Positions 1 to 42,900 of a stretch of DNA of 64,000 nt are shown here, one piece after another. A program made the translations under genes and the position numbers. The DNA comes from Candidatus Tanganyikabacteria bacterium. Its GTDB lineage: Bacteria; Cyanobacteriota; Sericytochromatia; S15B-MN24; VGJW01. The first letter of the stretch is position 1, and each line of letters opens with the position of its first letter. Where the stretch lies: positions 1 through 64,000 of the forward strand of contig VGJW01000016.1 in assembly GCA_016867265.1 (NCBI GenBank). Reading direction: 5' to 3'. Under the pieces are notes generated by a model that saw only the letters and a list, made by a program, of their open reading frames with translations, ran no database searches and was not told the origin of the DNA.

Positions 1-429
1 TTGGCTGTGGTCGGGCCAAGGTCATGTTTTTTCTGTGTTTGTTCTTGAAAGGCGGGTGTCTCCGGGGCGAATAAGGGGAGTGTGGGGCAGGCGCGGCGTG
101 TGTGACGCCCGGTGTCCGTAGGGTTCGGAAGGAGAACGACGATGGCAACGCTCGGTTCGATTCATTCGCAGGGTGTGGCGACGACGCTGGCGGTTTCGAG
201 TTCGGTGCAGGACATTCTTGCCGAGATCGAGGCGAAGGCAAAGCAGGTCGGCCAGAGGAACGCCGACGGCAAGGAGTACACCCCCCAGGAGTTCCAGGCC
301 TGGATCCTGTCGAAGCAGACGCAGCTGGACATGCTGTCGAAGCTTCTGAAGGCGGTCGAGGACGGCGTCCGGAAGATGCACCAGTAGCGCAAGCTTGCGC
401 GTCGGGGCCCCTGCCAGCTGGCGGGGGCC
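1..429 (+). repeat. Tandem repeat copy 1 (identical 429-bp block)
   Basis: Bases 1-429 are identical to 503-931, offset 502 bp. The block includes a leader of about 140 bp, the whole 81-codon gene and most of the hairpin after it. The copies first differ at 430 (t) against 932 (c), inside the hairpin. The block starts at the very first base of the window, so it may extend upstream, and the window or contig edge may be a break in a longer array. Confidence 0.97.
142..387 (+). CDS. Small helical protein, T3SS needle-like, copy 1
   Basis: 81-residue protein. The start at 142 is set by the Shine-Dalgarno GGAAGGAGAA at 127-136; an upstream in-frame start at 112 has no such site. The second half, from FQAW (about residue 50) to the C-terminus, aligns by eye without gaps to the C-terminal helix of needle subunits such as MxiH/PrgI, sharing Q, S, K, D and Q at matching positions. 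A proline-bearing turn (YTPQ) precedes that helix, and the length fits the 80-87-residue needle family. No signal peptide or membrane segment. Known: needle subunits are exported by type III secretion and polymerise. Inferred: this protein may do the same. No other injectisome gene is in the window, so a flagellar-export substrate or unrelated small protein is possible. Confidence 0.8.
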   Translation: MATLGSIHSQGVATTLAVSSSVQDILAEIEAKAKQVGQRNADGKEYTPQEFQAWILSKQTQLDMLSKLLKAVEDGVRKMHQ

Positions 430-17683: not shown

Positions 17684-19075
17684 TCAGGAGCGTTTGCCGA
17701 GGTAACGGGCGACAAGCTCGGCAGGGACGCCGTTGGCTCGGGCCATGGCGCGGAAGATCTCCACGGACGGAGTCGGGCGACGGACCAGGGCCGGATCGGT
17801 TTTGTCCAGGCGGTACAGGCCGAACGTCGGTGCCCACGTGCCGACTTCCCAATTGTCCGACAGGGTCCAGTAGCAGTAGCCGATTACCTTGGCCCCATCC
17901 CGGGCGGCCCGGGCCAAGGCGTGGACGTGGTTGACCAGGTAGGCATCCCGGGTCCATCCGTCGGGGCGGGGTTGGCCCCGGTGCGTGGCCATGCCGTTTT
18001 CGGCGACCAGCAGCGGCAGGCCATAGCGGCGATGCAGCAGCATGGCCGCGTCATACATGCCCTCGGGGTGGACCGGCCATCGCCACTGCGTCGCGACCTT
18101 GCCCAACTCATCGACGGCGGCCGCGTAGTAGTAGTCGAACGCCATGTAATCCATCGTGCGCCGTGGTTGGGATTCGGGCGTGTCCCGCCAGGCCAACAGG
18201 GCATCGCCGAACTTCTCGGTCGGATCGTCCACCGGCACCATCAGGGTCGTGGCCTTGCCGCTGCGCCGCAAGAACATGAAGAGGTTGGTCGAGACCCGCG
18301 CCGACGGATCCTCGGCGTGCAGGGCGTCATAGGCTTGCACGTGGGCCTCGGCCATGTGGTTGAGTGCCCGCGCGAAGGCCACGGGATTGACCTGTCCCGG
18401 TGGCACGATGCCCAGCAGGTAGCCATTCAGGGCCTCGATGTTGGCCTCGTTGATGGTGATCCACAGGATGTCCCGGCCCTTGAGTGCCTTGGCGACCACC
18501 GCCGCATACCGACCGAAAGCGGGGACCAGCCCGGGACGTTCCCACCCCTTGCCGCCATTGCCGTCCGGCATGAGCGAGAGGGGCGGGTCATAGAAGGCGG
18601 CCCGTCCCTTGCGGGCGCCGTAGGGGAGTGTCGTCGTATCGGCCCAGGCCGGATAGGAAAAGTGGTAGAGCGTCAAGATGGGCTGGAGGCCCTTGCTCCG
18701 GCAGTGGTCGACCACCTTGGCGTAGCGGGCGAGGGCCGCCTGGTTGAATACGCCCGGCCGGGGTTCGATCCGGGACCACTCGAGGCTCATCCGAAAGGCA
18801 TTGGCTCCCGAAGCCGCAGCCAGGTCGACGTCCTCCTCATAACGATCCCACGATGCCGTGGCCTTGCCGGCCGGCTCCTTGGCACGTCCGGCGCGCTCGA
18901 AGACTCGCCAGGAGGAGTCTTCGAGGCCTTCTTCATTCTGGATGGCCGCCATGGCGACGCCCCAGAGGAAGCCCTTGTCGAAGCCGAGTTCGGCCGGTTG
19001 GGAGCCTGCAGGTCCTGCGGCCAGCAGGCCAAGTGCCATCAGGCAGGGCAGAATGCGTCGAAGGATCGGTGGCAT
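17684..19075 (-). CDS. GH1-family glycosidase paralogue, exported
   Basis: 463 residues from the ATG at 19075, which shares its A with the stop of the upstream GH1 gene (TGATG). An N-terminal signal peptide (about 1-25, ending GPAGSQPA) has no lipobox. The GH1 (beta/alpha)8 barrel shows the acid/base in ITINEAN (E210) and the nucleophile in VAENGMAT (E358). The usual TxNEP is NEA here, an atypical change beside the acid/base. The glycone-site QxEG reads QNEEG. Known: GH1 enzymes hydrolyse beta-glucosides or beta-galactosides. It is likely a diverged duplicate of the next gene upstream; activity is plausible but substrate preference may differ. Confidence 0.88.
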   Translation of the reverse strand: MPPILRRILPCLMALGLLAAGPAGSQPAELGFDKGFLWGVAMAAIQNEEGLEDSSWRVFERAGRAKEPAGKATASWDRYEEDVDLAAASGANAFRMSLEWSRIEPRPGVFNQAALARYAKVVDHCRSKGLQPILTLYHFSYPAWADTTTLPYGARKGRAAFYDPPLSLMPDGNGGKGWERPGLVPAFGRYAAVVAKALKGRDILWITINEANIEALNGYLLGIVPPGQVNPVAFARALNHMAEAHVQAYDALHAEDPSARVSTNLFMFLRRSGKATTLMVPVDDPTEKFGDALLAWRDTPESQPRRTMDYMAFDYYYAAAVDELGKVATQWRWPVHPEGMYDAAMLLHRRYGLPLLVAENGMATHRGQPRPDGWTRDAYLVNHVHALARAARDGAKVIGYCYWTLSDNWEVGTWAPTFGLYRLDKTDPALVRRPTPSVEIFRAMARANGVPAELVARYLGKRS

Positions 19076-20499
19076 CAGGGGCGTGCGGTGGGCCGCGGAT
19101 ACTGCTCGAGCAGGGAGGGGGGCACGTCGTTGCCCGTGGCGATGGCGCGATAGGCCTCCACCGCTGGCGTGGACTTGCGCCTCAGCAGCGGATCGCGAGG
19201 ATCCACCTCGTAGAGGCCGAACCTTGGACGATAGCTGCCCCATTCGTAGTTGTCGAGGAGCGACCAATGGATGTAGCCGAGGCATGGCACGCCCTCGGCA
19301 ATGGCGCGGCGTACCTGGTCCGCGTGCTGGACCAGAAAGGCTTCGCGGCTCCAGCCGTCCGCCCGTGGCTTGCCATCGTCCGTCGCCATGCCGTTCTCGG
19401 CGATCAGCAGGGGCAGGCCGGTCCGGCTGGCGTGGACCTTCATCGCCGTGAACAGGCCTTCGGGACGCAGGGCCCATTCCCATTGGCGCGCCATGCGCTG
19501 CACCTCGGTCCATCGCCAGGCGTAGTAGTAGTCGAAGGCCATGAAATCGAGTTTGCGGGTGCCCTGGCCCAGCGTGCTTCTGCCCAACATCAGATTCAGG
19601 CCCTGCCAGTCCATCAAGCGGTCCAGCATCTCCCGGGCGGGATCCCCCGGGAAGACGGCGGCCGGGTCCGAGACGTGCGCCAGGTCGAAGAAGTTCGTCG
19701 AGACGATGGCATCGGGGTCTTCCTGATGGATGGCGTCATACGCAAGGACGTGGCCGAGCGTCATGTGCCGGGTGACGGCGGAAGCTGCGCCCGGATTGAC
19801 CTTGCCCGGCGGGAACACGCCCGTCAGGTAGCCCAGGATGACCTGGGTGTTCGGCTCGTTCAGGGTGATCCAGTAGCGGACGTCAGGGCCGAACTCTCGC
19901 GCGGCGAAACGGGCGAATTGCTCGAAGGCTGCCGCCGTGTGCAGGTCCTCCCAGCCGGGATAGCCGCCGGTTGTCTGCTTGTAGGTATCGAGCCAGGCCG
20001 GATAGGCGAAGTGGTGCAGGGTCACGATGGGTTCCAGACCGCGGGCCCGTGCGGCGCGGATCATGGTCCGGTAGCGCGCGACGGCCGTCCCGTCCACCAC
20101 GCCGGGACGCGGTTCGATCCGCGCCCACTCGATCGAGAAGCGGAAGGCGTTCAGGCCCATGCCGCGCGCAAGGTCGAAGTCCTCGGCGTAGCGGTTCCAC
20201 GAGTCCGTGGCACGGCCCGGCAGGGCTGTCGTACGCCCGGCCTCGGCCCATGCCGCCCAGTTCGAGACCTTGTCGTGCCCCTCGACCTGATGTCCGGCCG
20301 TGGCGACACCCCAGAGGAAGCCCTGCGGGAAGCGGCTGCGCACGGTGCTGGGCTGCTCCTGCCGCGGGTCACCGGGCAGCGCGGGCAGGTTGCCGGGCGG
20401 CAGACCACCAGGTCGCTGGGTGCAAGCCTGAATGCCCATGACCAGCAGGACCCGGGCGGCGAGGGCCGCCAGGCGTCGCTTGGGTTCCCGGGCGCGCAT
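19075..20499 (-). CDS. GH1-family glycosidase lipoprotein
   Basis: 474 residues from the ATG at 20499, with AAGGA about 10 nt upstream. The lipobox is GIQAC (C26), so it is predicted to be membrane-anchored outside the cytoplasm. GH1 features are all present: HQVEG (about 70-74), LHHFAYPAW, acid/base in TLNEPN (E215) and nucleophile in IAENG (E368). It overlaps the downstream GH1 gene by one base, so both are made from one mRNA. Most GH1 enzymes are cytoplasmic, so two exported copies are noteworthy and suggest extracellular or periplasmic oligosaccharide use. Neither carries a recognisable carbohydrate-binding module. Confidence 0.92.
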   Translation of the reverse strand: MRAREPKRRLAALAARVLLVMGIQACTQRPGGLPPGNLPALPGDPRQEQPSTVRSRFPQGFLWGVATAGHQVEGHDKVSNWAAWAEAGRTTALPGRATDSWNRYAEDFDLARGMGLNAFRFSIEWARIEPRPGVVDGTAVARYRTMIRAARARGLEPIVTLHHFAYPAWLDTYKQTTGGYPGWEDLHTAAAFEQFARFAAREFGPDVRYWITLNEPNTQVILGYLTGVFPPGKVNPGAASAVTRHMTLGHVLAYDAIHQEDPDAIVSTNFFDLAHVSDPAAVFPGDPAREMLDRLMDWQGLNLMLGRSTLGQGTRKLDFMAFDYYYAWRWTEVQRMARQWEWALRPEGLFTAMKVHASRTGLPLLIAENGMATDDGKPRADGWSREAFLVQHADQVRRAIAEGVPCLGYIHWSLLDNYEWGSYRPRFGLYEVDPRDPLLRRKSTPAVEAYRAIATGNDVPPSLLEQYPRPTARP

Positions 20500-20546
20500 G
20501 GGGAGTCTGTCCTTGGTTGTCGTCCGGACGATCGCCCGGCTTGCTT

Positions 20547-21473
20547 TCAGGGCTGGTTGACCCGCAGGCGCACCGTCCGGGCGGCCGTGGCGCACCAGAG
20601 GCTTTCCCCGCCATCCCCGCACAGGGCCGTGATGGGTTCGACCCCGTCGAGAAGGACCTTGGTGCCGCCTCCTCGCCAACCGATGATCGCAAGGCCGCGC
20701 GCCGCGACGAGCGTGCCGTCCCCCAACCACGCCAAGCCCGAGATGCCGGTCTCGGGCCAGCGGGCGATGCGGTCGCCGGGGCCGGATACCACGACGCCGT
20801 GCCGGCCATCGGCCACCGCGAGCCGGGCATCCGGAGCGACGGCGAGGGCGCCCGGTTCCGGCAGCGGCAGGCGCAGGGGGGTGGGTTGGTCGGGCCAGGC
20901 ACCCTTGAGCCCGGACCCCAGAACCGTATCGATCCGGCCTTCTGCGTCGATGCGGCGTACGCGACGGAAGCCGGGGTCCGCCAGCCACGTGTCTCCCCCG
21001 AGGGTCGCCAGGGCCGCCGGACGGGAAAGCTGCGCCCCGACGGCCCTGGCCCGGTCGCCAATGGGCTGGAAGTCCGTCCCTGACCCTGCGAATACCGTGG
21101 TGATGGCCGGCTGCCCGGGGGAGACCCGCCAGACCCGGTGGTGGCCGGGATCGGAGATGAGCAGGCTGCCGTCCGGCGCCACGGCGAGCCCGGGAGGGGC
21201 TCCGAGTCGTGCCGGCAGCGTCAGGGGACGGATGCTCGCGCTTGCGACTCCGTCGGGCCGTTCCGCCAGCCAGGCGTGCCCGGCCCCGTCGACGCCCGCG
21301 AGAAAGGCGGTTCCGATGGCCAGTTGGCTGGCACCGGCCTCCATCGTATCGACCACGGTGAAGGTCGGCCACGCAGGCTCTCGGGAGAGGCATCCGGCGA
21401 CGAGCGCCAGCACGGGGGCCGTTGCGGCCACGCGCCGCAAGGCGGTGGCAAGGGCGTGACGGGCGGGGGGCAT
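20547..21473 (-). CDS. NHL/SMP-30-like beta-propeller lipoprotein
   Basis: 308 residues from the ATG at 21473. The signal peptide ends LVAGC (C28). The rest is repeated beta-propeller blades such as PGLAVAPDGSLLISDPGHHRVWRV, spaced about 50 residues apart, as in NHL or SMP-30 proteins. No catalytic residues can be assigned. The family serves as surface binding platforms or lactonases. It is preceded by TGC-TAGGAT with 7 nt to the ATG and no separate ribosome site, so it is likely leaderless. An in-frame ATG at 21503 lies upstream of that promoter element. It is divergent from the actin-like gene and 47 bp upstream of the GH1 pair, on the same strand. Confidence 0.8.
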   Translation of the reverse strand: MPPARHALATALRRVAATAPVLALVAGCLSREPAWPTFTVVDTMEAGASQLAIGTAFLAGVDGAGHAWLAERPDGVASASIRPLTLPARLGAPPGLAVAPDGSLLISDPGHHRVWRVSPGQPAITTVFAGSGTDFQPIGDRARAVGAQLSRPAALATLGGDTWLADPGFRRVRRIDAEGRIDTVLGSGLKGAWPDQPTPLRLPLPEPGALAVAPDARLAVADGRHGVVVSGPGDRIARWPETGISGLAWLGDGTLVAARGLAIIGWRGGGTKVLLDGVEPITALCGDGGESLWCATAARTVRLRVNQP

Positions 21474-35551: not shown

Positions 35552-36029
35552 GGCGTCGTTCCGTTTGCGCGTCGGCAAGCGCGAGGTGCGGGTCGAAGGT
35601 CCCGAGGAGCTGGTGCGTGAGGCCATGCGGCACTGGGCCGGCCTCTGGACCGGTGAGGACGTGCGCACGCCGCCTACCGTCGAGGCCGGCCTCGGCGAGG
35701 AGGATCACGTCGCTCCCGTGCTTCGGGTCCAGAAGAACATCGGCATCCGTGACCTGGTGGCCCTGAAGGAGCCCGGCTCCCCGCGGGACAGGCTGCTTAC
35801 GGCAGCGTATTACCTCGAGCGATACGAGAAGCGGGAGCGCTACGGCCTCGATCAGTTGAGGCTGCTCTGGCTCGAAGCCTACCCGTGCGCGCCGATGGAC
35901 CCTGAAGCGTGGGAGGATGCCATTCGGGATGGCTACCTCGAACGTGTCGCGGATGGACAGTTCACGTTGACCTTCTCGGGCGAGAGCTTCGTCCAGAATG
36001 GCCTGGTCGAGGAGTATCGACCGGGATGA
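35535..36029 (+). CDS. Hypothetical protein between recN and msrB
   Basis: 164 residues from the ATG at 35535, 17 bp inside recN, with GGGGAGGT upstream. Not recognised. Residues 1-45 are a short alpha/beta segment (FRLRVGKREVRVEGPEELV). Residues 80-160 resemble a winged-helix or HTH fold (DRLLTAAYYLERYEKRERYGLDQLRLL, then EDAIRDGYLERVADGQFTLT). No signal or membrane segment. Its stop overlaps the msrB start (ATGA), so all three genes are coupled. A DNA-linked role with RecN is possible but not shown. Confidence 0.7.
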   Translation: MAARHEASFRLRVGKREVRVEGPEELVREAMRHWAGLWTGEDVRTPPTVEAGLGEEDHVAPVLRVQKNIGIRDLVALKEPGSPRDRLLTAAYYLERYEKRERYGLDQLRLLWLEAYPCAPMDPEAWEDAIRDGYLERVADGQFTLTFSGESFVQNGLVEEYRPG

Positions 36030-36520
36030 AGACGCTGCCTGCCCTGCCAGCCCTGCTGCTGGCTGTCCTGGCCGAGGCCCCCGGCGTTGCTGCCCCCGTG
36101 CCGACGACGCGTGCCGCGTCCCTGTCGGCCGATGCCTGGCATTGCCTGCGGATGAAGGGCACGGAGAGACCCTTCTCGGGTGCTTTCTGGGACCAGCATG
36201 AACCGGGCGTCTACCGCTGCGGGGATTGCCGGACGGTGCTGTTCGACAGCAAGCACAAGTTCGATTCCGGTACGGGCTGGCCCAGTTTCGACCGGCCGGC
36301 GGCGTCGGCTTCGGTTCGTCTCGTGGCCGACCGCAGCTACGGCATGGTCCGGACCGAGGTCCAGTGTGCACGGTGCGGCGGGCATCTGGGCCATGTCTTC
36401 GACGACGGGCCCGCGACGACCGGGCAGCGCTACTGCATCAACTCGGCGAGCCTCGTCTTCGTGCCCGACTCCCTAAGGCCAGAACCGCCCCGGCCCGGCA
36501 AGGGGAAGGGGAGGTCCTGA
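36026..36520 (+). CDS. msrB: Exported methionine-R-sulfoxide reductase MsrB
   Basis: 164 residues from the ATG at 36026. A signal peptide (about 1-22, MKTLPALPALLLAVLAEAPG...) precedes a complete MsrB domain: zinc cysteines CGDC and CARC, GTGWPSF and the catalytic Cys in RYCINSASL. It reduces Met-R-sulfoxide in proteins, here on the outer face of the cytoplasmic membrane. E. coli MsrB is cytoplasmic, so this is an envelope-repair version. Translationally coupled to the preceding gene. Convergent with the YceI gene 10 bp away. Confidence 0.93.
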   Translation: MKTLPALPALLLAVLAEAPGVAAPVPTTRAASLSADAWHCLRMKGTERPFSGAFWDQHEPGVYRCGDCRTVLFDSKHKFDSGTGWPSFDRPAASASVRLVADRSYGMVRTEVQCARCGGHLGHVFDDGPATTGQRYCINSASLVFVPDSLRPEPPRPGKGKGRS

Positions 36521-36530
36521 GCCGCAGGGC

Positions 36531-37133
36531 CTACTTGGCAGCCTGCTCGATCAGCTCCAGTTCGAGGCTGATGGCAATATCGTCACCGACCAGCACGCCG
36601 CCGGTCTCGACGGCCTTGTTCCACGTCAGGCCGTAGTCCCGACGGTCGAGATGCGTGGTGGCCTCGGTGCCGGTCCGCATGTTGCCCCAGGGATCCTTGG
36701 CAGCCTTTGCGGGCAGGGCGACCTGCAGCGTCACGGGCTTGGTCACGCCGTGCAGCGTCAGGTTGCCGACGACGGACAGGCCGTCCTTGCCGACCTTGGC
36801 GACGCGGGTGCTGCGGAAGGTCATCGCGGGGAACTTCTCGACATCGAAGAAGTCCGCACTCTTGAGGTGACCGTCCCGCTTCGCATTGCCTGTGTCGACG
36901 CTGGCCACATCGATGGTGGCCTCGACCGTCGACTTCTCGGGATGCGCGGCATCATAGACCACCGTGCCCTTGAGCGCGGGGAAAGATCCCCGGACGTTGC
37001 TGACCATCAGGTGCTTGACCTTGAAGTGGGCAGCCGAGTGCATGTCGTCGATGGCGTAGGTGACGGGCGCGGCGACGGCAGGCGCCGCGGCAAGGAGCGT
37101 CAGGACCAAGGCTGAGGATGTGGCGAATCGCAA
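36531..37133 (-). CDS. YceI-family secreted lipocalin-like protein
   Basis: 200 residues from a TTG at 37133, 6 nt after GGGAGAT. That start gives a clean signal peptide (RFATSSALVLTLLAAAPAVAA). A longer frame to 37184 would bury it. The YceI pattern is VTYAIDDMHSAAHFKVKHLMVSNVRGSF, then TFRSTRV, GNLTLHGVTKPVTL and a C-terminal DYGLTWNKAVETGGVLVGDDIAI (given as about residues 165-187). The family binds polyisoprenoids in a lipocalin-like barrel in the periplasm. It stands alone, with no obvious partner nearby. Confidence 0.93.
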   Translation of the reverse strand: MRFATSSALVLTLLAAAPAVAAPVTYAIDDMHSAAHFKVKHLMVSNVRGSFPALKGTVVYDAAHPEKSTVEATIDVASVDTGNAKRDGHLKSADFFDVEKFPAMTFRSTRVAKVGKDGLSVVGNLTLHGVTKPVTLQVALPAKAAKDPWGNMRTGTEATTHLDRRDYGLTWNKAVETGGVLVGDDIAISLELELIEQAAK

Positions 37134-37224
37134 GAATGGATCTCCCGTGTGTGGCAAGGAACAACTGGTGTCATCGTACACCACCAGCGGTACCCCGGGG
37201 GCGTATGTTGGGAGGCGTGTCGCT

Positions 37225-37266
37225 CAAAAGGCTTCGTGCCCCCCGACCGAAGCCGAGGGGCACGAA
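37225..37266 (-). terminator. Rho-independent terminator of the repeat lipoprotein gene
   Basis: Read on the minus strand: TTCGTGCCCC (from 37266) pairs with GGGGCACGAA (to 37233), with extra pairs and a CTTCG loop, then GCCTTTTG. It starts 15 bp after the stop at 37281 and implies one transcript through both halves of the interrupted gene. Confidence 0.88.
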
Positions 37267-37280
37267 TGCACGCTCTGGTG

Positions 37281-38345
37281 TCAGGGCTGGACCGGGCCGT
37301 CGTAGGCGAAGCCCAGGAACGAGAAGGTCGACCCACTGGTGCCGATGAGGATCTCGCGGATCTCTTCGCCGGCAGGAACCGTGACATGCAGGACATAGCC
37401 GGAACCCTCAGGCCGAATTGCCGTCCTGTCGATCGGGAAGACGCCAGTACCGGTCACGATGTCACCCGCAATCACGCCCGTATCCGAATTGAAGAAGATG
37501 GACATCTTGCCCGACGGACGGGCTGGCCGGACACTGAATTGACCGTCCGGGACGAAGTTGCCCTGCTCGTCGCTGGCATACATTTCGCCGCCGCGGATGT
37601 ATAGGTTGCCGACGGATTGCTCGAAGACGTTGACGTCCGAACTGAGGAAGGGGTTGGACCGGGTGTAGAGACCCTCAGCCAAGCCGCTGACCTTCAGTTC
37701 GTACCGGGCCATCGGCGGGGGCGGCGGAGCCTGACGGCTGCCGAACATCATGTTGCCCAAGTCTCCGCTGATCGCACCGTCTCCACGGATGGTGAAGACG
37801 GCCGAGAGCGCTTCAGGCAAGGGTTCGAGACCCGTCGAGCGGAAGGTGCCTTGGAACAGGACGCCCGTATCGCTCGGAGTCGTTCCGTCGCCAACCGGCA
37901 TGAACGTGGCGTCCCGCAGTTCGTAAAGCATGCCGTTGGCATTGCCGAGGTAGATGAGGGGCTGGCCACTGAGGTCGTCCTTGACCGTCAGATTCAGGTA
38001 CTGGGGGAAGGGGTTGGTGCTGCTGGCCTGCACCTCGACATCGAACTGGCCAATCGCGAAGGACGGAAGCGCTGGCGCAGGCGAGGGATTCACCGGCTGG
38101 TTCTGGTCCTCGATGTAACTGCTGGCGAATTCGCCCTTCACATCCGTGACGCTGCCGGCAAGGCGGAAGTATCCGTTGAGGCCACCCGGCGAGAGCGTCA
38201 GCGACGCTTCGAGGTCACCCGCCTGTTCATTGACCCGGACCGACTTGAAGACCCCGTTCAGGCTGAAGGTGTTGGCGTTCAGTGCCTCGATGGTCGGTAC
38301 CGCCATCACGGCTACCTGACCATCCTTGTCCACCAGCTCGACCAT
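37281..38345 (-). CDS. C-terminal part of the interrupted repeat lipoprotein
   Basis: 354 residues if read from the ATG at 38345, but that ATG is mid-domain and has no Shine-Dalgarno or signal peptide. It holds the rest of one beta repeat and about two more, joined by Pro-rich linkers (PSPAPALP and PPPPPM). The end VPAGEEIREILIGTSGSTFSFLGF is a final strand set. It is listed so that the reading frame is on record; independent translation is unlikely unless the amber codon is suppressed or reinitiation occurs. Confidence 0.5.
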   Translation of the reverse strand: MVELVDKDGQVAVMAVPTIEALNANTFSLNGVFKSVRVNEQAGDLEASLTLSPGGLNGYFRLAGSVTDVKGEFASSYIEDQNQPVNPSPAPALPSFAIGQFDVEVQASSTNPFPQYLNLTVKDDLSGQPLIYLGNANGMLYELRDATFMPVGDGTTPSDTGVLFQGTFRSTGLEPLPEALSAVFTIRGDGAISGDLGNMMFGSRQAPPPPPMARYELKVSGLAEGLYTRSNPFLSSDVNVFEQSVGNLYIRGGEMYASDEQGNFVPDGQFSVRPARPSGKMSIFFNSDTGVIAGDIVTGTGVFPIDRTAIRPEGSGYVLHVTVPAGEEIREILIGTSGSTFSFLGFAYDGPVQP

Positions 38346-38378
38346 CAGGTGGCCGTTGGGGTCTGAAGCAAAGGATGC

Positions 38379-41300
38379 CTACAGATCACGACCATAGGGG
38401 TTGCCGTTGAACCACTGCATCGTGTAGCGACCCTGAAGCTCCTTGGGCAGGCCTGCGGCCGGGGGCTCGATGCCACCACCACCGCCGCCGTTGGCGGGAC
38501 GGACTGCCGCGAAAGTCGTGGTGTTGGTGTTTGCCTCCCCGAAGGCACCCTCCACGCTGCCGTCGGCAAGGAAGTTCAGCGTGAGCTTCAAGGTTTCCGG
38601 ACCGATGACGCCCTGGCTGATGGTCAACAAACCTTCGGCCACGAAGCTGCCGTCATCACGCTTGGTGATCTTCAGATCATCGGCATGAGCAACGGACCCG
38701 GAAGCCTGCCCGAAGAGGGATGCCGTGAAGAGCAGGGGCCTGTCCTGATTGCCGGTAGTGACGGTCCCGAGGAACAGGCCATAATCCGCCCTGTAGGGGC
38801 TCAGTCCCATCAGGTTGAGCGCGTACTCGCCCAAGAACGAATCGGGGAGCGCCACGAAGGGCTCCGGAACAGGTTGTTGCTGCTGGTTTGCAGGCGCAAC
38901 GTTGCCGTGGCCCTGGTTCGCTCCGTCCGAGATCTCGATGTTGGTCAGCAGCCAGGGTCGCTGGTTTTGATTGTTCCTGTTGTCCATCAGGGGGAAGCGA
39001 ACTTTGAACGGGGTGTTGCTGTTCCCGTAGTAGTCACCCACCAGCTCTGTGCCTCCGGGATAGCCTTCCAGCCTCAGGTTGACGATCTGGCCAGCCGTTG
39101 AAGCATTGCCCTGGCTGTCATAGGCGGTGACGGAGGCCCTGTAGCCGCCATCGTTGAAAATGGCGAGGTCGAATTTGCCGGAACCAATCGGGTTGAAGGC
39201 TCCGTCGTTCATGAACACGGACCATTGGCCGAAGACCTCGTCGATGGCCAACGGGAAGTTGCCGCCGCCGCCGTTGCCCCCCTCGAAGGGTGCGGCATAG
39301 ACGCGGTACTGCTGGTTGTCGACAGTCAGGTTACCGCTCTGCAGCACCCAACGACCGACTTGGCTGGCCGTGTCGGTGATATAAGCGACATCGAACACGA
39401 AGCCCGCAATCCGGTTGTTTCCAAGGTCAACATTGACTGCGGCCCGAGGCATTTGGGTATTGGCGTCCTGAAACAGTCGGAACTCGAGCACGCGGCCCAC
39501 CGCCCTGGGCGTGGGGTCGTTCTGGCCCTTGGCCATCAAGTCACCCCGCACCATGCCGTTCGCATCGGGTTTGAGGGAGAGACCGACCATCTCGCCGCCG
39601 AAGTCAGGCATGCTCGTGCCGAAGTCCAGCTTCCACTGGCCGGCAAAGGCAAGCGGGGCCGGCAATGGGCCGGGGACAGGACCGCTGCCGCCGTTACCAT
39701 TGTCATCCTCGGCCGGGATCTCCTCGACAACGAATTCACGGTTGCCCAGCAAACCGGAAATCAGGACCAGACGGCCGCCGCCGGGCATCGAGGGATCAGG
39801 CTTGTAGGCCGCGAGGTACCGAAGCGGATAGGTCATGCCGTCGTCCAGCACAAGCTCACCCTTGAGGAAGAACTTTCCCGTCGCAAGCCTTTCGACGAAC
39901 AAGCGCTCTACCTTGCCGATGACAGCCGGGACCGAGTCGGCATCCGTTTCCTGAAGCACGCGTGCCGAGACACCACCGCCCATCAGCGGGATGATCTGGA
40001 CGCCGGTCATCATGTTGCCGAACGGGCTTGAGTTGTTCGGGAACACGAAAACCCAGTCACCGCCAAAGGCCTCGAGAGGTGGCAAGCCGGGCTCGCCGCC
40101 TCCGCCCTGGTTGCCGCCGCCGAAGGCCTCGAGCGCGGCCTCGAGCAGGAGCTCGTTGGCCGCGTTGAAAATCATCACGCCGACCTTGTCCCCCCCGGCA
40201 GGCGGGGCCATCAGTTCGATCCGGATCTCGCCGCCCAAGTTGGTGACGAAGGCCTTGGCTACGAAACGACCATCGGGGCCTGCAGGCATGAGGCCGCCCT
40301 CAGCCAACGTATTCGGGCCGGCTAGCGTCGCCTGGAACAGCTCGACCCTCAGCGCGCCATTGTTCGTCCGTGTCACACGCAGGCCCAGGTCGCCCAAGTC
40401 GGGGTTCGTCACGCCCGAGTAGATCGCAAGGCGCTGATCGCCCGCCATGGTCAGAGCCGTCAGCCATTCGGGGTTCGGGTAGATGGGGTCTGTCGGGCCC
40501 GTGCTGCCGCCGTCGCTTGGCGGGATGCTCACGGTGAAGGGGGTGCCCTCGAGGAGACCAGACCTCAGGATCCAGCGACCGTTGGGGTTCAGTGTGTCCT
40601 TGATGAACGTCGCGACGTAGCGGACCTTGAGCTTCTGGCCGCCATCGAGTTCGAGGACGCCAACGAGATTCGCCATGCCATTGCTATCGCGGTCAACGGT
40701 CAGGCCGGTCACGACGCCAATCTTGGCAGGATTGCCATTCTGGTCCTGCAGAACCTTGGCATCGATGCCGCCATTGACGCCGGGCTGAAGCAGAATTCCG
40801 GTCTTCCGGCCCGCGAACAGGGGTGCGTCGCCAAGCTCGAAAATCCAGGCGCCTGACAACTCCTCGACCCGGGGCAGGACGGTCGGGGTGGTCCCCCCGT
40901 CTCCCGGGGTGACCGTGATGTCGCCGCCGCCCGTCGAGCCACCGCCGGTGCTGCCACCGCCGATGGGGTTGACGATGACACCACCGCCACCCGTCGATCC
41001 CCCGGGCACGGTGTTGCCCGGCTGATCGCCAAACTGCTTGGTCGTGGTGAACGCGAGCTCGAGCTTGGTGTTGCCGTCGGCGGCGACGGCGAACTTGCCC
41101 GTGAGCTCGCCGACCGACTTGTCGGTGCTGCCGGAGTTCTCGTCGAAGATCTTGCCGATGATGGTGGTGTCGTTGACCGTGAAGTCGATCGAGATGTTGG
41201 CTTGCGAGCCCGTGCGCGGCTTGTCCTTCGTCAGGACGAGCTTGGTCAGGGACTTCTGTCCGCCGCCGAAGAGCGTGAACGTGCCGATGCCGCGGAACAC

Positions 41301-41543
41301 GCTGCCATCTTTGGTGAACTGCAGCGTCCCCTTCTCGGGATTGAAGTCCTGCGTGTTCTCCTGGTCAATCAGGTACCAGGTGCCCGCCAGGGCCTTGAAG
41401 TCATTGGCGGCCGGTTGCTGCTCTCCTGCCGACGGCGTGGTGGCAGCCGTCTGGGCCAGATTCCTGAGGGCGGCCGCGTCGCATCCCGCCAGCACCGCCA
41501 GCGACAGGGTGGCCGCAAGGCCCGCCTTGACCGAACGATTCAC
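38379..41543 (-). CDS. Repeat-domain lipoprotein, N-terminal part (ends at amber stop)
   Basis: 1054 residues from a GTG at 41543. The signal peptide ends LAVLAGC (C21), so it is a surface or periplasmic lipoprotein. After it come about eight beta-rich domains of 110-130 residues, each opening with a pattern like L.G.W.F (for example LSGAWIFELGDAPLF) and separated by Gly/Ser/Thr or Pro linkers such as GGGSTGGGSTGGGD. No enzyme motif is seen and no family is recognised. The design suggests an adhesin or a surface-binding scaffold. Transcribed from TGC-TAAAAT at 41598-41606. The truncated product would end in half a domain. Confidence 0.75.
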   Translation of the reverse strand: MNRSVKAGLAATLSLAVLAGCDAAALRNLAQTAATTPSAGEQQPAANDFKALAGTWYLIDQENTQDFNPEKGTLQFTKDGSVFRGIGTFTLFGGGQKSLTKLVLTKDKPRTGSQANISIDFTVNDTTIIGKIFDENSGSTDKSVGELTGKFAVAADGNTKLELAFTTTKQFGDQPGNTVPGGSTGGGGVIVNPIGGGSTGGGSTGGGDITVTPGDGGTTPTVLPRVEELSGAWIFELGDAPLFAGRKTGILLQPGVNGGIDAKVLQDQNGNPAKIGVVTGLTVDRDSNGMANLVGVLELDGGQKLKVRYVATFIKDTLNPNGRWILRSGLLEGTPFTVSIPPSDGGSTGPTDPIYPNPEWLTALTMAGDQRLAIYSGVTNPDLGDLGLRVTRTNNGALRVELFQATLAGPNTLAEGGLMPAGPDGRFVAKAFVTNLGGEIRIELMAPPAGGDKVGVMIFNAANELLLEAALEAFGGGNQGGGGEPGLPPLEAFGGDWVFVFPNNSSPFGNMMTGVQIIPLMGGGVSARVLQETDADSVPAVIGKVERLFVERLATGKFFLKGELVLDDGMTYPLRYLAAYKPDPSMPGGGRLVLISGLLGNREFVVEEIPAEDDNGNGGSGPVPGPLPAPLAFAGQWKLDFGTSMPDFGGEMVGLSLKPDANGMVRGDLMAKGQNDPTPRAVGRVLEFRLFQDANTQMPRAAVNVDLGNNRIAGFVFDVAYITDTASQVGRWVLQSGNLTVDNQQYRVYAAPFEGGNGGGGNFPLAIDEVFGQWSVFMNDGAFNPIGSGKFDLAIFNDGGYRASVTAYDSQGNASTAGQIVNLRLEGYPGGTELVGDYYGNSNTPFKVRFPLMDNRNNQNQRPWLLTNIEISDGANQGHGNVAPANQQQQPVPEPFVALPDSFLGEYALNLMGLSPYRADYGLFLGTVTTGNQDRPLLFTASLFGQASGSVAHADDLKITKRDDGSFVAEGLLTISQGVIGPETLKLTLNFLADGSVEGAFGEANTNTTTFAAVRPANGGGGGGIEPPAAGLPKELQGRYTMQWFNGNPYGRDL

Positions 41544-41597
41544 TTGAATTCTCTTTCTCTCGAACAGACACGAGGGAGTTCACAAAGTGTCACAGCA

Positions 41598-41606
41598 ATT
41601 TTAGCA
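41598..41606 (-). promoter_or_regulatory. Extended -10 promoter of the repeat lipoprotein gene
   Basis: TGC-TAAAAT on the minus strand. A transcript start near 41591 gives a leader of about 48 nt. It has no matching -35 at 17 bp, as expected for an extended -10. The rest of 41544-41707 shows no gene. Confidence 0.5.
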
Positions 41607-41707
41607 AGTATGGCCGTTTCTTGGCTAGGCGGGATGCCGCTTGCCGCCTGTGAGATCGGATACACGGATCAGGGCCCGTGTCCCGCCGCGCAGGCGACCC
41701 GGATCGG

Positions 41708-42733
41708 TCAGGGCTGTTCCAGCAGCACCTGGTGATGGCCCCACTCTTCCCCGTTGGCCATGAGGTGGAGCTCCTGCAGGGCCATCAGGCCGGCGCGCCA
41801 GCGACGGCGCCAGACGGGCGCCTCGTCTCCCTTGAGCTTGCGCAGTTGTTCCATGACCGAGACCTCGCGCGTCGCCATGTTCTCGATCTGGCCTTGAAGA
41901 GTCCGCGCCATATAGGTGCCTGGCATCGCCCACCATGCGTCGAGGCGCCAGGGACCAAGCTGGCCGGCAAAGACGTCGAGCGTCGTCACATGGCACGCCT
42001 TGAGCAGGTCCTCGCCAAGCCACGCGAGCGGTTCCATAGGTAGCACGTGGGGAACGTCCGAGTGGCTCGGCAGCTGGACCAGAAGCGTGCCGCCGGGTTC
42101 TGTCCACGCGAACATCCGGTCCAGCAGGCGCTTGTGGTCGAGCCACCTCGCCGTTCCTTCCACGGCAACCAGGCGCTCGAAGGTGGTTCCGGGATCGAAT
42201 CGGCTGAGCGAGCTGGTTCTGACCTCGAGGTTGAGCAGGCCACGCTGCCGTGCCTGGCGGGTGACGTGGGCCGCAATCGTGGCGTTCGCGCATCGGGTGA
42301 CGACCTTGCTTTGGCGGAATCGCGCCGCCAGGTGGAGGGCCGTCCCCCCCAGCCCGCCCCCCAAGTCAAGGATCGAATCGCCGTCGGCGATCCGTGCACG
42401 CTGGGCGATCAGCTCGAGGGCCGCTTGCTCCGCAGGCTCTTGCCGCAGGTCGTCACTGTCGGCAAACCAGGGACCCGTGAGCGAGGCGGGACCCAGAAGA
42501 TGGCTGTGAAGTGCCGGTGGCGCCGCGCCCTCGGGGTGCAGCAGGCCAGCCTCGGAGGCGACGAGGGGGCCCTTGGCGAGTGCCTCGAGATGTTCGTCCG
42601 TGCGGCGGGCCACTCCCTTGGTCCCGCCTTCGCGCAGTTGTCGGGCCAACGTCAGGGCCCGGCCCCGGAACTGGCCGGCCAGGATGTCGTCAGGCAGGAA
42701 GCCCCTGTCGATCAGGCGCTCGAACACTCCCAC
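41708..42733 (-). CDS. SAM-dependent methyltransferase, cyclopropane-synthase-like
   Basis: 341 residues from a GTG at 42733; a second GTG two codons later is possible. A Rossmann motif I, SILDLGGGLGGTALHLAARF (about 119-138), and motif II-like strand fit a class I methyltransferase. The N-terminal segment (IDRGFLPDDILAGQFRGRAL) and RWLDHKRLLDRMFAWTEPGGTLLVQ resemble the cyclopropane-fatty-acid-synthase / coclaurine N-methyltransferase branch. The substrate cannot be told; lipid or small amine are likely. It is a single gene, divergent from the DJ-1 gene and 102 bp downstream of the repeat lipoprotein promoter region. Confidence 0.78.
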   Translation of the reverse strand: MGVFERLIDRGFLPDDILAGQFRGRALTLARQLREGGTKGVARRTDEHLEALAKGPLVASEAGLLHPEGAAPPALHSHLLGPASLTGPWFADSDDLRQEPAEQAALELIAQRARIADGDSILDLGGGLGGTALHLAARFRQSKVVTRCANATIAAHVTRQARQRGLLNLEVRTSSLSRFDPGTTFERLVAVEGTARWLDHKRLLDRMFAWTEPGGTLLVQLPSHSDVPHVLPMEPLAWLGEDLLKACHVTTLDVFAGQLGPWRLDAWWAMPGTYMARTLQGQIENMATREVSVMEQLRKLKGDEAPVWRRRWRAGLMALQELHLMANGEEWGHHQVLLEQP

Positions 42734-42900
42734 GATCTTCAGGACCTCGGGGGGGGGAGCCGGTTGCTTTGGGGCACGGTCGGTTGCGCGGGGCGGTTGT
42801 GGAGGATTTAAGGAGGATATCAGGACCGATACGCGGTCGCTTGTGTCCGGCGTGGCTTGTCGGCAAGATGCTGTGGTCGGTTTTCCTGATGGAGGTCGAG

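What the first reader, a model, noticed from the sequence alone, without database searches (positions are those of the whole stretch)
38376..38384. Single amber codon inside a 1420-codon lipoprotein gene
The TAG at 38381-38379 (CTG TAG GCA on the minus strand) is the only break in an otherwise open frame that continues for 366 codons to a normal terminator. It cuts a repeat domain in the middle. TAG is used as a normal stop elsewhere here (387, 9944, 11510), so whole-genome recoding is unlikely. Options are nonsense mutation (phase-like loss), suppressed readthrough or base-call error.
Basis: partly seen in the sequence, partly recalled or inferred. Interest (0 to 1): 0.55.

Follow-up and report, generated by a model that had tools for sequence, protein, structure and literature searches.

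The report
Lipoprotein gene cut by one stop
A long surface-type lipoprotein gene of an unnamed bacterium carries a single stop codon three quarters of the way along, most likely an ordinary recent nonsense mutation or a sequencing error rather than a special decoding mechanism.

Summary
In detail: TAG at 38381-38379 (minus strand) is the only break in a 1420-codon frame from GTG 41543 to TGA 37283-37281. The 365 codons behind it keep the codon signature of the part before it, begin inside a repeat with no recognisable new N-terminus, and end just before a strong terminator-like hairpin, so this was probably one gene. It encodes a lipoprotein with a lipobox (by eye) and about ten all-beta-type segments of roughly 130 residues.

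Recoding is contradicted: release factor 1 is present, none of 41 tRNAs found has anticodon CUA, TAG ends 50 of 207 gene-like frames in a 464-kb sample, and complete FliF, FliW and YceI genes end in TAG. Little points to programmed readthrough, and no switching tract was found. No relative was found in 97 other genomes at E <= 1e-5, so selection and persistence of the stop cannot be tested.

Best reading: a recent nonsense mutation truncating an orphan lipoprotein inside its eighth repeat; base-call or strain-mixture error in a 41-contig draft is the main rival. Ordinary; low interest.

The parts
38379..41543 (-). Lipoprotein gene up to and including the amber codon: 1054 sense codons, GTG start; signal peptide with lipobox LAGC (Cys = codon 21, read by eye)
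38379..38381 (-). The in-frame TAG (codon 1055), context CTG TAG GCA
37281..38378 (-). Continuation of the same frame: 365 codons and TGA; coding statistics like the part before the TAG
38448..41399 (-). Segments d1-d7 (hand-drawn borders) with Gly/Pro/Asn/Gln-rich linkers; d2, d4 and d5 clearly alike (27-36% identity), the others weakly or not significantly
38067..38447 (-). Segment d8, cut by the TAG at its 23rd residue
37284..38066 (-). Segments d9-d10 (similarity to the other segments weak, E 0.04 or worse), wholly behind the TAG
37226..37266 (-). Terminator-like hairpin (15-bp core stem, UUCG loop) and UUUU tract, 14 nt after the distal TGA
   Evidence: 61-nt stretch: -35.2 kcal/mol, z -4.96, 0 of 200 shuffles as stable; not listed by the consensus scan

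Best explanation
One gene for a surface-type lipoprotein built of about ten all-beta-type repeats has suffered a recent nonsense mutation. RF1 ends translation at codon 1055, 22 residues into repeat 8, and the cell makes a lipoprotein with seven whole repeats and a stub. The last 365 codons are no longer translated in frame and have not yet decayed. Shown: the stop, the intact frame behind it, an RF1 gene, no CUA tRNA among 41 found, TAG in use as a terminator. Inferred: that the base is real, that the full frame was ancestral, that the gene is expressed and the truncated protein is made.
For: Single stop; GC3 and codon scores alike on both sides (0.40 and 0.36 per codon over 100 codons each). 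The frame after the TAG starts inside a repeat. A strong hairpin lies just behind the distal TGA. RF1 gene at G000:C4, 519 bits, no inner stop. All 41 tRNA matches were read and none is CUA. TAG ends 50 of 207 gene-like frames and such genes as FliF, a transketolase-type subunit and a CoA-transferase subunit, FliW and YceI. Of 26 same-frame stop junctions with coding-like DNA on both sides in 464 kb, by my reading only this one lacks a new gene's N-terminus behind it.
Against: No second strain or read data, so an error cannot be excluded. No relative of the gene was found, so the ancestral state is inferred from the sequence alone. The tail shows no decay, which fits a very recent event but fits error or readthrough equally. 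Codon composition alone does not set this junction apart from ordinary neighbouring genes (10th of 800).
Confidence: 0.6

Rival explanations
1. The TAG is a base-call, consensus or strain-mixture error in a draft assembly; the gene is whole in the organism.
For: Draft in 41 contigs, 98.2% complete; the start of the same contig carries an exact 429-base repeat at offset 502, which may be an assembly-end artefact; no decay after the TAG; only one such break noticed in the sample.
Against: Nothing at the site itself points to an error: the frame is not shifted and the longest single-base run in the about 100 bases shown is four.
Confidence: 0.27
2. Low-level or regulated readthrough of UAG makes a minor full-length form that is selected for.
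For: Frame kept open for 365 codons; the base after the stop is G, which raised readthrough in an E. coli reporter study (PMC11126739, one section read); a rather stable fold just downstream (z -2.18, 9 of 200 shuffles at least as stable); in-frame stops in bacterial genes are reported as widespread and, taken together, under purifying selection, though with fairly high dN/dS (PMC7918605, abstract and part 1 of the Results read).
Against: Mean TAG readthrough in that E. coli study was under 1% of the control in the passages seen, and it found no correlation between folding energy and readthrough; the stop is not at a repeat border; no CUA tRNA found.
Confidence: 0.09
3. Two separate genes: a 1054-codon lipoprotein and a downstream gene started inside the old frame.
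For: A GTG/ATG pair 24-25 codons after the TAG has Shine-Dalgarno pairing of -7.4/-7.1 kcal/mol, stronger than the lipoprotein's own start (-3.0); Shine-Dalgarno pairing is a poor guide here, as 5 of 18 called starts score -3.0 or weaker.
Against: -7.1 is the 5th percentile of 2000 random sites, and the first 14 candidate starts were tried; the product would start inside a repeat without a signal peptide.
Confidence: 0.03
4. Genome-wide or condition-dependent reading of TAG as an amino acid.
For: Two tRNAs usual in bacteria (Ile-GAU, Ala-UGC; recalled) are missing from the list, so the tRNA set is probably not complete.
Against: RF1 present; no CUA among 41 tRNAs; TAG is the normal end of complete proteins.
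Confidence: 0.01

Closest known systems
Bacterial genes with a single in-frame stop (nonsense pseudogenes / short-lived in-frame stops; PMC7918605)
   Same: One stop in an otherwise open coding frame, no decay behind it; that paper reports such stops as widespread and tending to persist for a short evolutionary time.
   Different: Here no orthologue was found, so persistence and dN/dS cannot be tested.
Lipocalin-like / small beta-barrel domains (Pfam GH43_C and Lipocalin_4; PDB rows such as 7n35, avidin, fHbp)
   Same: Repeat d2 is modelled with eight beta strands, pLDDT 83.3; best VIA Z 7.7, rmsd 3.4 over 97 residues, to 7n35; weak Pfam hit of the d1 region to GH43_C, E 0.02.
   Different: All under the curated cut-offs or in the range that may mean only a common arrangement; no Foldseek hit at E <= 0.001.
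Amber codes with a suppressor tRNA or without RF1 (recalled)
   Same: An in-frame TAG inside a coding frame.
   Different: RF1 present, no CUA tRNA found, TAG ends ordinary genes.

Membership tests
Gene interrupted by a nonsense mutation | One stop inside a coding frame that continues with intact coding signal | tested here: met
Gene interrupted by a nonsense mutation | An uninterrupted orthologue or allele exists | tested here: inconclusive
   No homologue at E <= 1e-5 in the 97 other genomes of 98 searched; none confirmed in genome contigs, plasmids or viral contigs, whose records nearest the window may be left out
Gene interrupted by a nonsense mutation | The base is real (reads) | not testable with these tools
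   no read data held
Amber recoding (TAG as sense) | CUA-anticodon tRNA | tested here: not met
   0 of 41 tRNAs; the set lacks Ile-GAU and Ala-UGC, so it is probably slightly incomplete
Amber recoding (TAG as sense) | RF1 lost, or TAG avoided as terminator | tested here: not met
   RF1 519.1 bits, cut-off 423.25; TAG 50 of 207 ends
Programmed readthrough | Stop conserved among orthologues with purifying selection after it | not testable with these tools
   no orthologue found
Phase-variable gene | Hypermutable repeat tract or invertible element at the switch | tested here: not met
   One tandem-repeat row in 37200-41700, at 40383-40401, far from the TAG; 14 imperfect inverted pairs in 37000-42000, none perfect, minimum length 14
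Bacterial lipoprotein | Signal peptide ending in a lipobox cysteine | tested here: met
   MNRSVKAGLAATLSLAVLAGC read by eye; no signal-peptide predictor available
Lipocalin-like repeats | Pfam match over cut-off or clear fold match | tested here: inconclusive
   only repeat d2 was folded with an alignment

The most novel reading that the evidence does not exclude
The amber codon is a stable, selected length switch: most molecules end inside repeat 8 and a small readthrough share carries repeats 8-10, giving two lengths of a surface lipoprotein from one gene.
Probability: 0.06. Interest if true: 0.5.

Novelty: new member of a known kind. Interest (0 to 1): 0.1.

Why it matters
As it stands it matters little: one probable nonsense allele or error in an orphan lipoprotein of an uncharacterised bacterium. 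If several strains kept the stop with the tail under selection, it would be a case for selected readthrough in a bacterium with an ordinary code.

Tried and rejected
Genome-wide recoding: rejected. Suppressor tRNA: none among 41. RNA family in the window: none at gathering score; no tRNA in the window. Two-gene reading: weak. Phase variation: no tract or perfect inverted repeat. Relatives for dN/dS: none by protein in 97 other genomes, by repeat profile in 17 other genomes of the class, in plasmids, viral contigs or genome contigs. Family libraries: Pfam only sub-cut-off hits at E up to 10, NCBIfam and PHROGs none at E <= 1, PDB by sequence one hit of no note (E 0.75). The fold of the 365-aa tail alone was too poor to use (pLDDT 41.9). 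Foldseek and VIA gave only generic beta-barrel rows for repeat d2.

Naming the organism through RecN failed: the 80 loci kept of 578 related ones came from several phyla, at no more than 37% identity. The neighbouring methyltransferase has distant homologues in 5 of 17 other class genomes (24-28% identity); their loci were not read.

The control examined 657 same-frame junctions of at least 100 codons on each side; 26 passed the coding test (16 TAG, 6 TGA, 4 TAA, the query included). That the other 25 are ordinary neighbouring genes is my reading of the sequences printed; only 4 of the 25 were also given to Pfam. Five TAG pairs picked from the looser list went to Pfam: three are clear neighbouring genes, one has a separate HD gene downstream and no match upstream, and one (L037) has no match on either side and failed the six-frame test. 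The looser scan ranked the query junction 10th of 800. Neither scan finds frameshifts.

Papers: two library searches, listings seen; PMC7918605 abstract and part 1 of 2 of its Results; PMC11126739 passages and one section. No other paper was opened.

Full report
Observation. The minus-strand frame starting at GTG 41543 has exactly two stops, TAG at codon 1055 (38381-38379) and TGA at codon 1421 (37283-37281). An in-frame TGA upstream, at 41582, sets the frame's limit. The part after the TAG is open for 365 codons; 2 of 5000 first-order Markov sequences of that length and make-up were stop-free, and the five other frames hold 2 to 18 stops. GC by codon position matches on both sides of the TAG, 0.631/0.471/0.810 before and 0.616/0.458/0.797 after.

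What the gene is. The N-terminus reads MNRSVKAGLAATLSLAVLAGC, a signal peptide with a lipobox (by eye). The body falls into about ten segments of 117-177 residues, linkers included; borders were drawn by hand. Segments d2, d4 and d5 are clearly alike (BLASTP against the ten segments only, filters off: E 1e-20 to 1e-9, 27-36% identity); d3 with d7 and d2 with d6 weakly (E 0.001 and 0.007); all other pairs have E above 0.01, so that d8-d10 belong to the repeat series is inferred from length, order and linkers. AlphaFold2 models d2 as eight beta strands (pLDDT 83.3, alignment of four repeats). Foldseek gave no PDB match at E <= 0.001, and the second aligner gave Z up to 7.7 to assorted small beta-barrels, a range that may mean only a common arrangement. 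Pfam matches are below cut-off (GH43_C, a lipocalin-like domain, E 0.02), and NCBIfam and PHROGs gave none. The TAG follows residue 22 of segment d8, so the shorter product ends in a stub rather than at a domain border.

One gene or two. No recognisable N-terminus follows the TAG. The first two start codons, 12 and 16 codons on, have Shine-Dalgarno pairing of -1.7 and -3.0 kcal/mol; a GTG/ATG pair at 24-25 codons has -7.4/-7.1, near the 5th percentile of random sites and unremarkable among the first 14 candidates. This measure is a poor guide here: the lipoprotein's own start scores -3.0, and 5 of 18 other called starts score -3.0 or weaker. A hairpin with a 15-bp core and a UUCG loop, followed by a U tract, lies 14 nt behind the distal TGA (-35.2 kcal/mol, z -4.96, 0 of 200 shuffles as stable). 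The consensus scan did not list it and listed seven other terminator-like sites in 36400-42900 against 4.5 expected; it also gave a promoter-like site at 41627-41598, upstream of the start, one of 2 sites against 0.7 expected. This fits one transcription unit ending behind the distal TGA, but no transcript was seen.

Is TAG read as an amino acid here? RF1 is present as an uninterrupted gene (519.1 bits against a cut-off of 423.25). The 41 tRNA genes found by Rfam were all read by ARAGORN and none has anticodon CUA; Ile-GAU and Ala-UGC are also missing from the list, so the assembly is probably slightly incomplete. In a sample of 464 kb (the window and 20 stretches of 20 kb), gene-like open frames end in TGA 139, TAG 50 and TAA 18 times, of 207. 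Proteins that stop at TAG and carry Pfam matches running to or near the end of the profile include FliF, a transketolase-type subunit and a CoA-transferase subunit, and a T3SS/flagellar-type ATPase, a clostripain-family protein, FlgM, FliW and YceI. TAG is an ordinary terminator.

Is such a break common here? Of 657 same-frame stop junctions with at least 100 codons on each side, 26 have coding-like DNA on both sides that also beats the five other frames. By my reading of the sequences printed, 25 show the N-terminus of a new gene behind the stop, and only the query continues in mid-domain; 4 of those 25 were also checked with Pfam. Such breaks are thus rare, which fits a single mutation or error better than a genome that suppresses amber codons. 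The scan finds no frameshifts.

Switching. Tandem Repeats Finder gave one row in 37200-41700, at 40383-40401, far from the TAG. Fourteen inverted pairs of 14 or more bases in 37000-42000 are all imperfect (71-93%), as expected of a repeat-bearing gene or chance. Nothing suggests phase variation.

Relatives. Protein search found the gene only in its own genome among 98 (E <= 1e-5), and a profile of four repeats only there among 18 of the class. Scans of genome contigs, plasmids and viral contigs gave none, with the note that records very near the window's genome may be left out. Hence no dN/dS, no allele comparison, and no test of whether the stop persists.

Mechanism. The simplest account is a recent nonsense mutation in a lineage-restricted lipoprotein whose last repeats are dispensable, leaving a shorter lipoprotein; dispensability is inferred. 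The main rival is an error or strain mixture in a draft of 41 contigs; the start of the same contig carries an exact 429-base repeat at offset 502 that may be artefactual. Selected readthrough is possible but has little positive evidence beyond the intact tail, a G after the stop and a modestly stable fold downstream (z -2.18). In an E. coli reporter study G in that place raised readthrough, but folding energy did not correlate with it (PMC11126739), and mean TAG readthrough was below 1% of the control in the passages seen. Another study reports in-frame stops in bacterial genes as widespread and tending to persist for a short time, and, taken together, under purifying selection with fairly high dN/dS (PMC7918605), so the case has many known counterparts.

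Verdict.

Noticed in passing
window 1-429 and 503-931: Exact 429-base direct repeat at offset 502 at the very start of contig C16, carrying two identical 91-aa frames (112-387 and 614-889); perhaps an assembly-end artefact or a fresh tandem duplication.
   Followed up: partly
L049:13403 (G000:C15:43403): A MotA-like protein (named from recall) appears to start at a CTG codon directly after an in-frame TAG, with TGGAG upstream; the first ATG/GTG/TTG is 30 codons further on.
   Followed up: no
window 17684-21393, minus strand: Two adjacent, similar glycoside-hydrolase-1-like genes (named from recall of their motifs), each with an apparent exported N-terminus inside the longer called frame, by eye.
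   Followed up: no
window 35909-36520, plus strand: An MsrB-like protein (named from recall, with CxxC motifs) in a called frame that overlaps the frame before it.
   Followed up: no
window and L031-L050: Among the 26 coding-like same-frame junctions TAG is the stop in 16 (the query included), although it ends only 50 of 207 gene-like frames; perhaps because TGA stops often overlap the next start in another frame.
   Followed up: no
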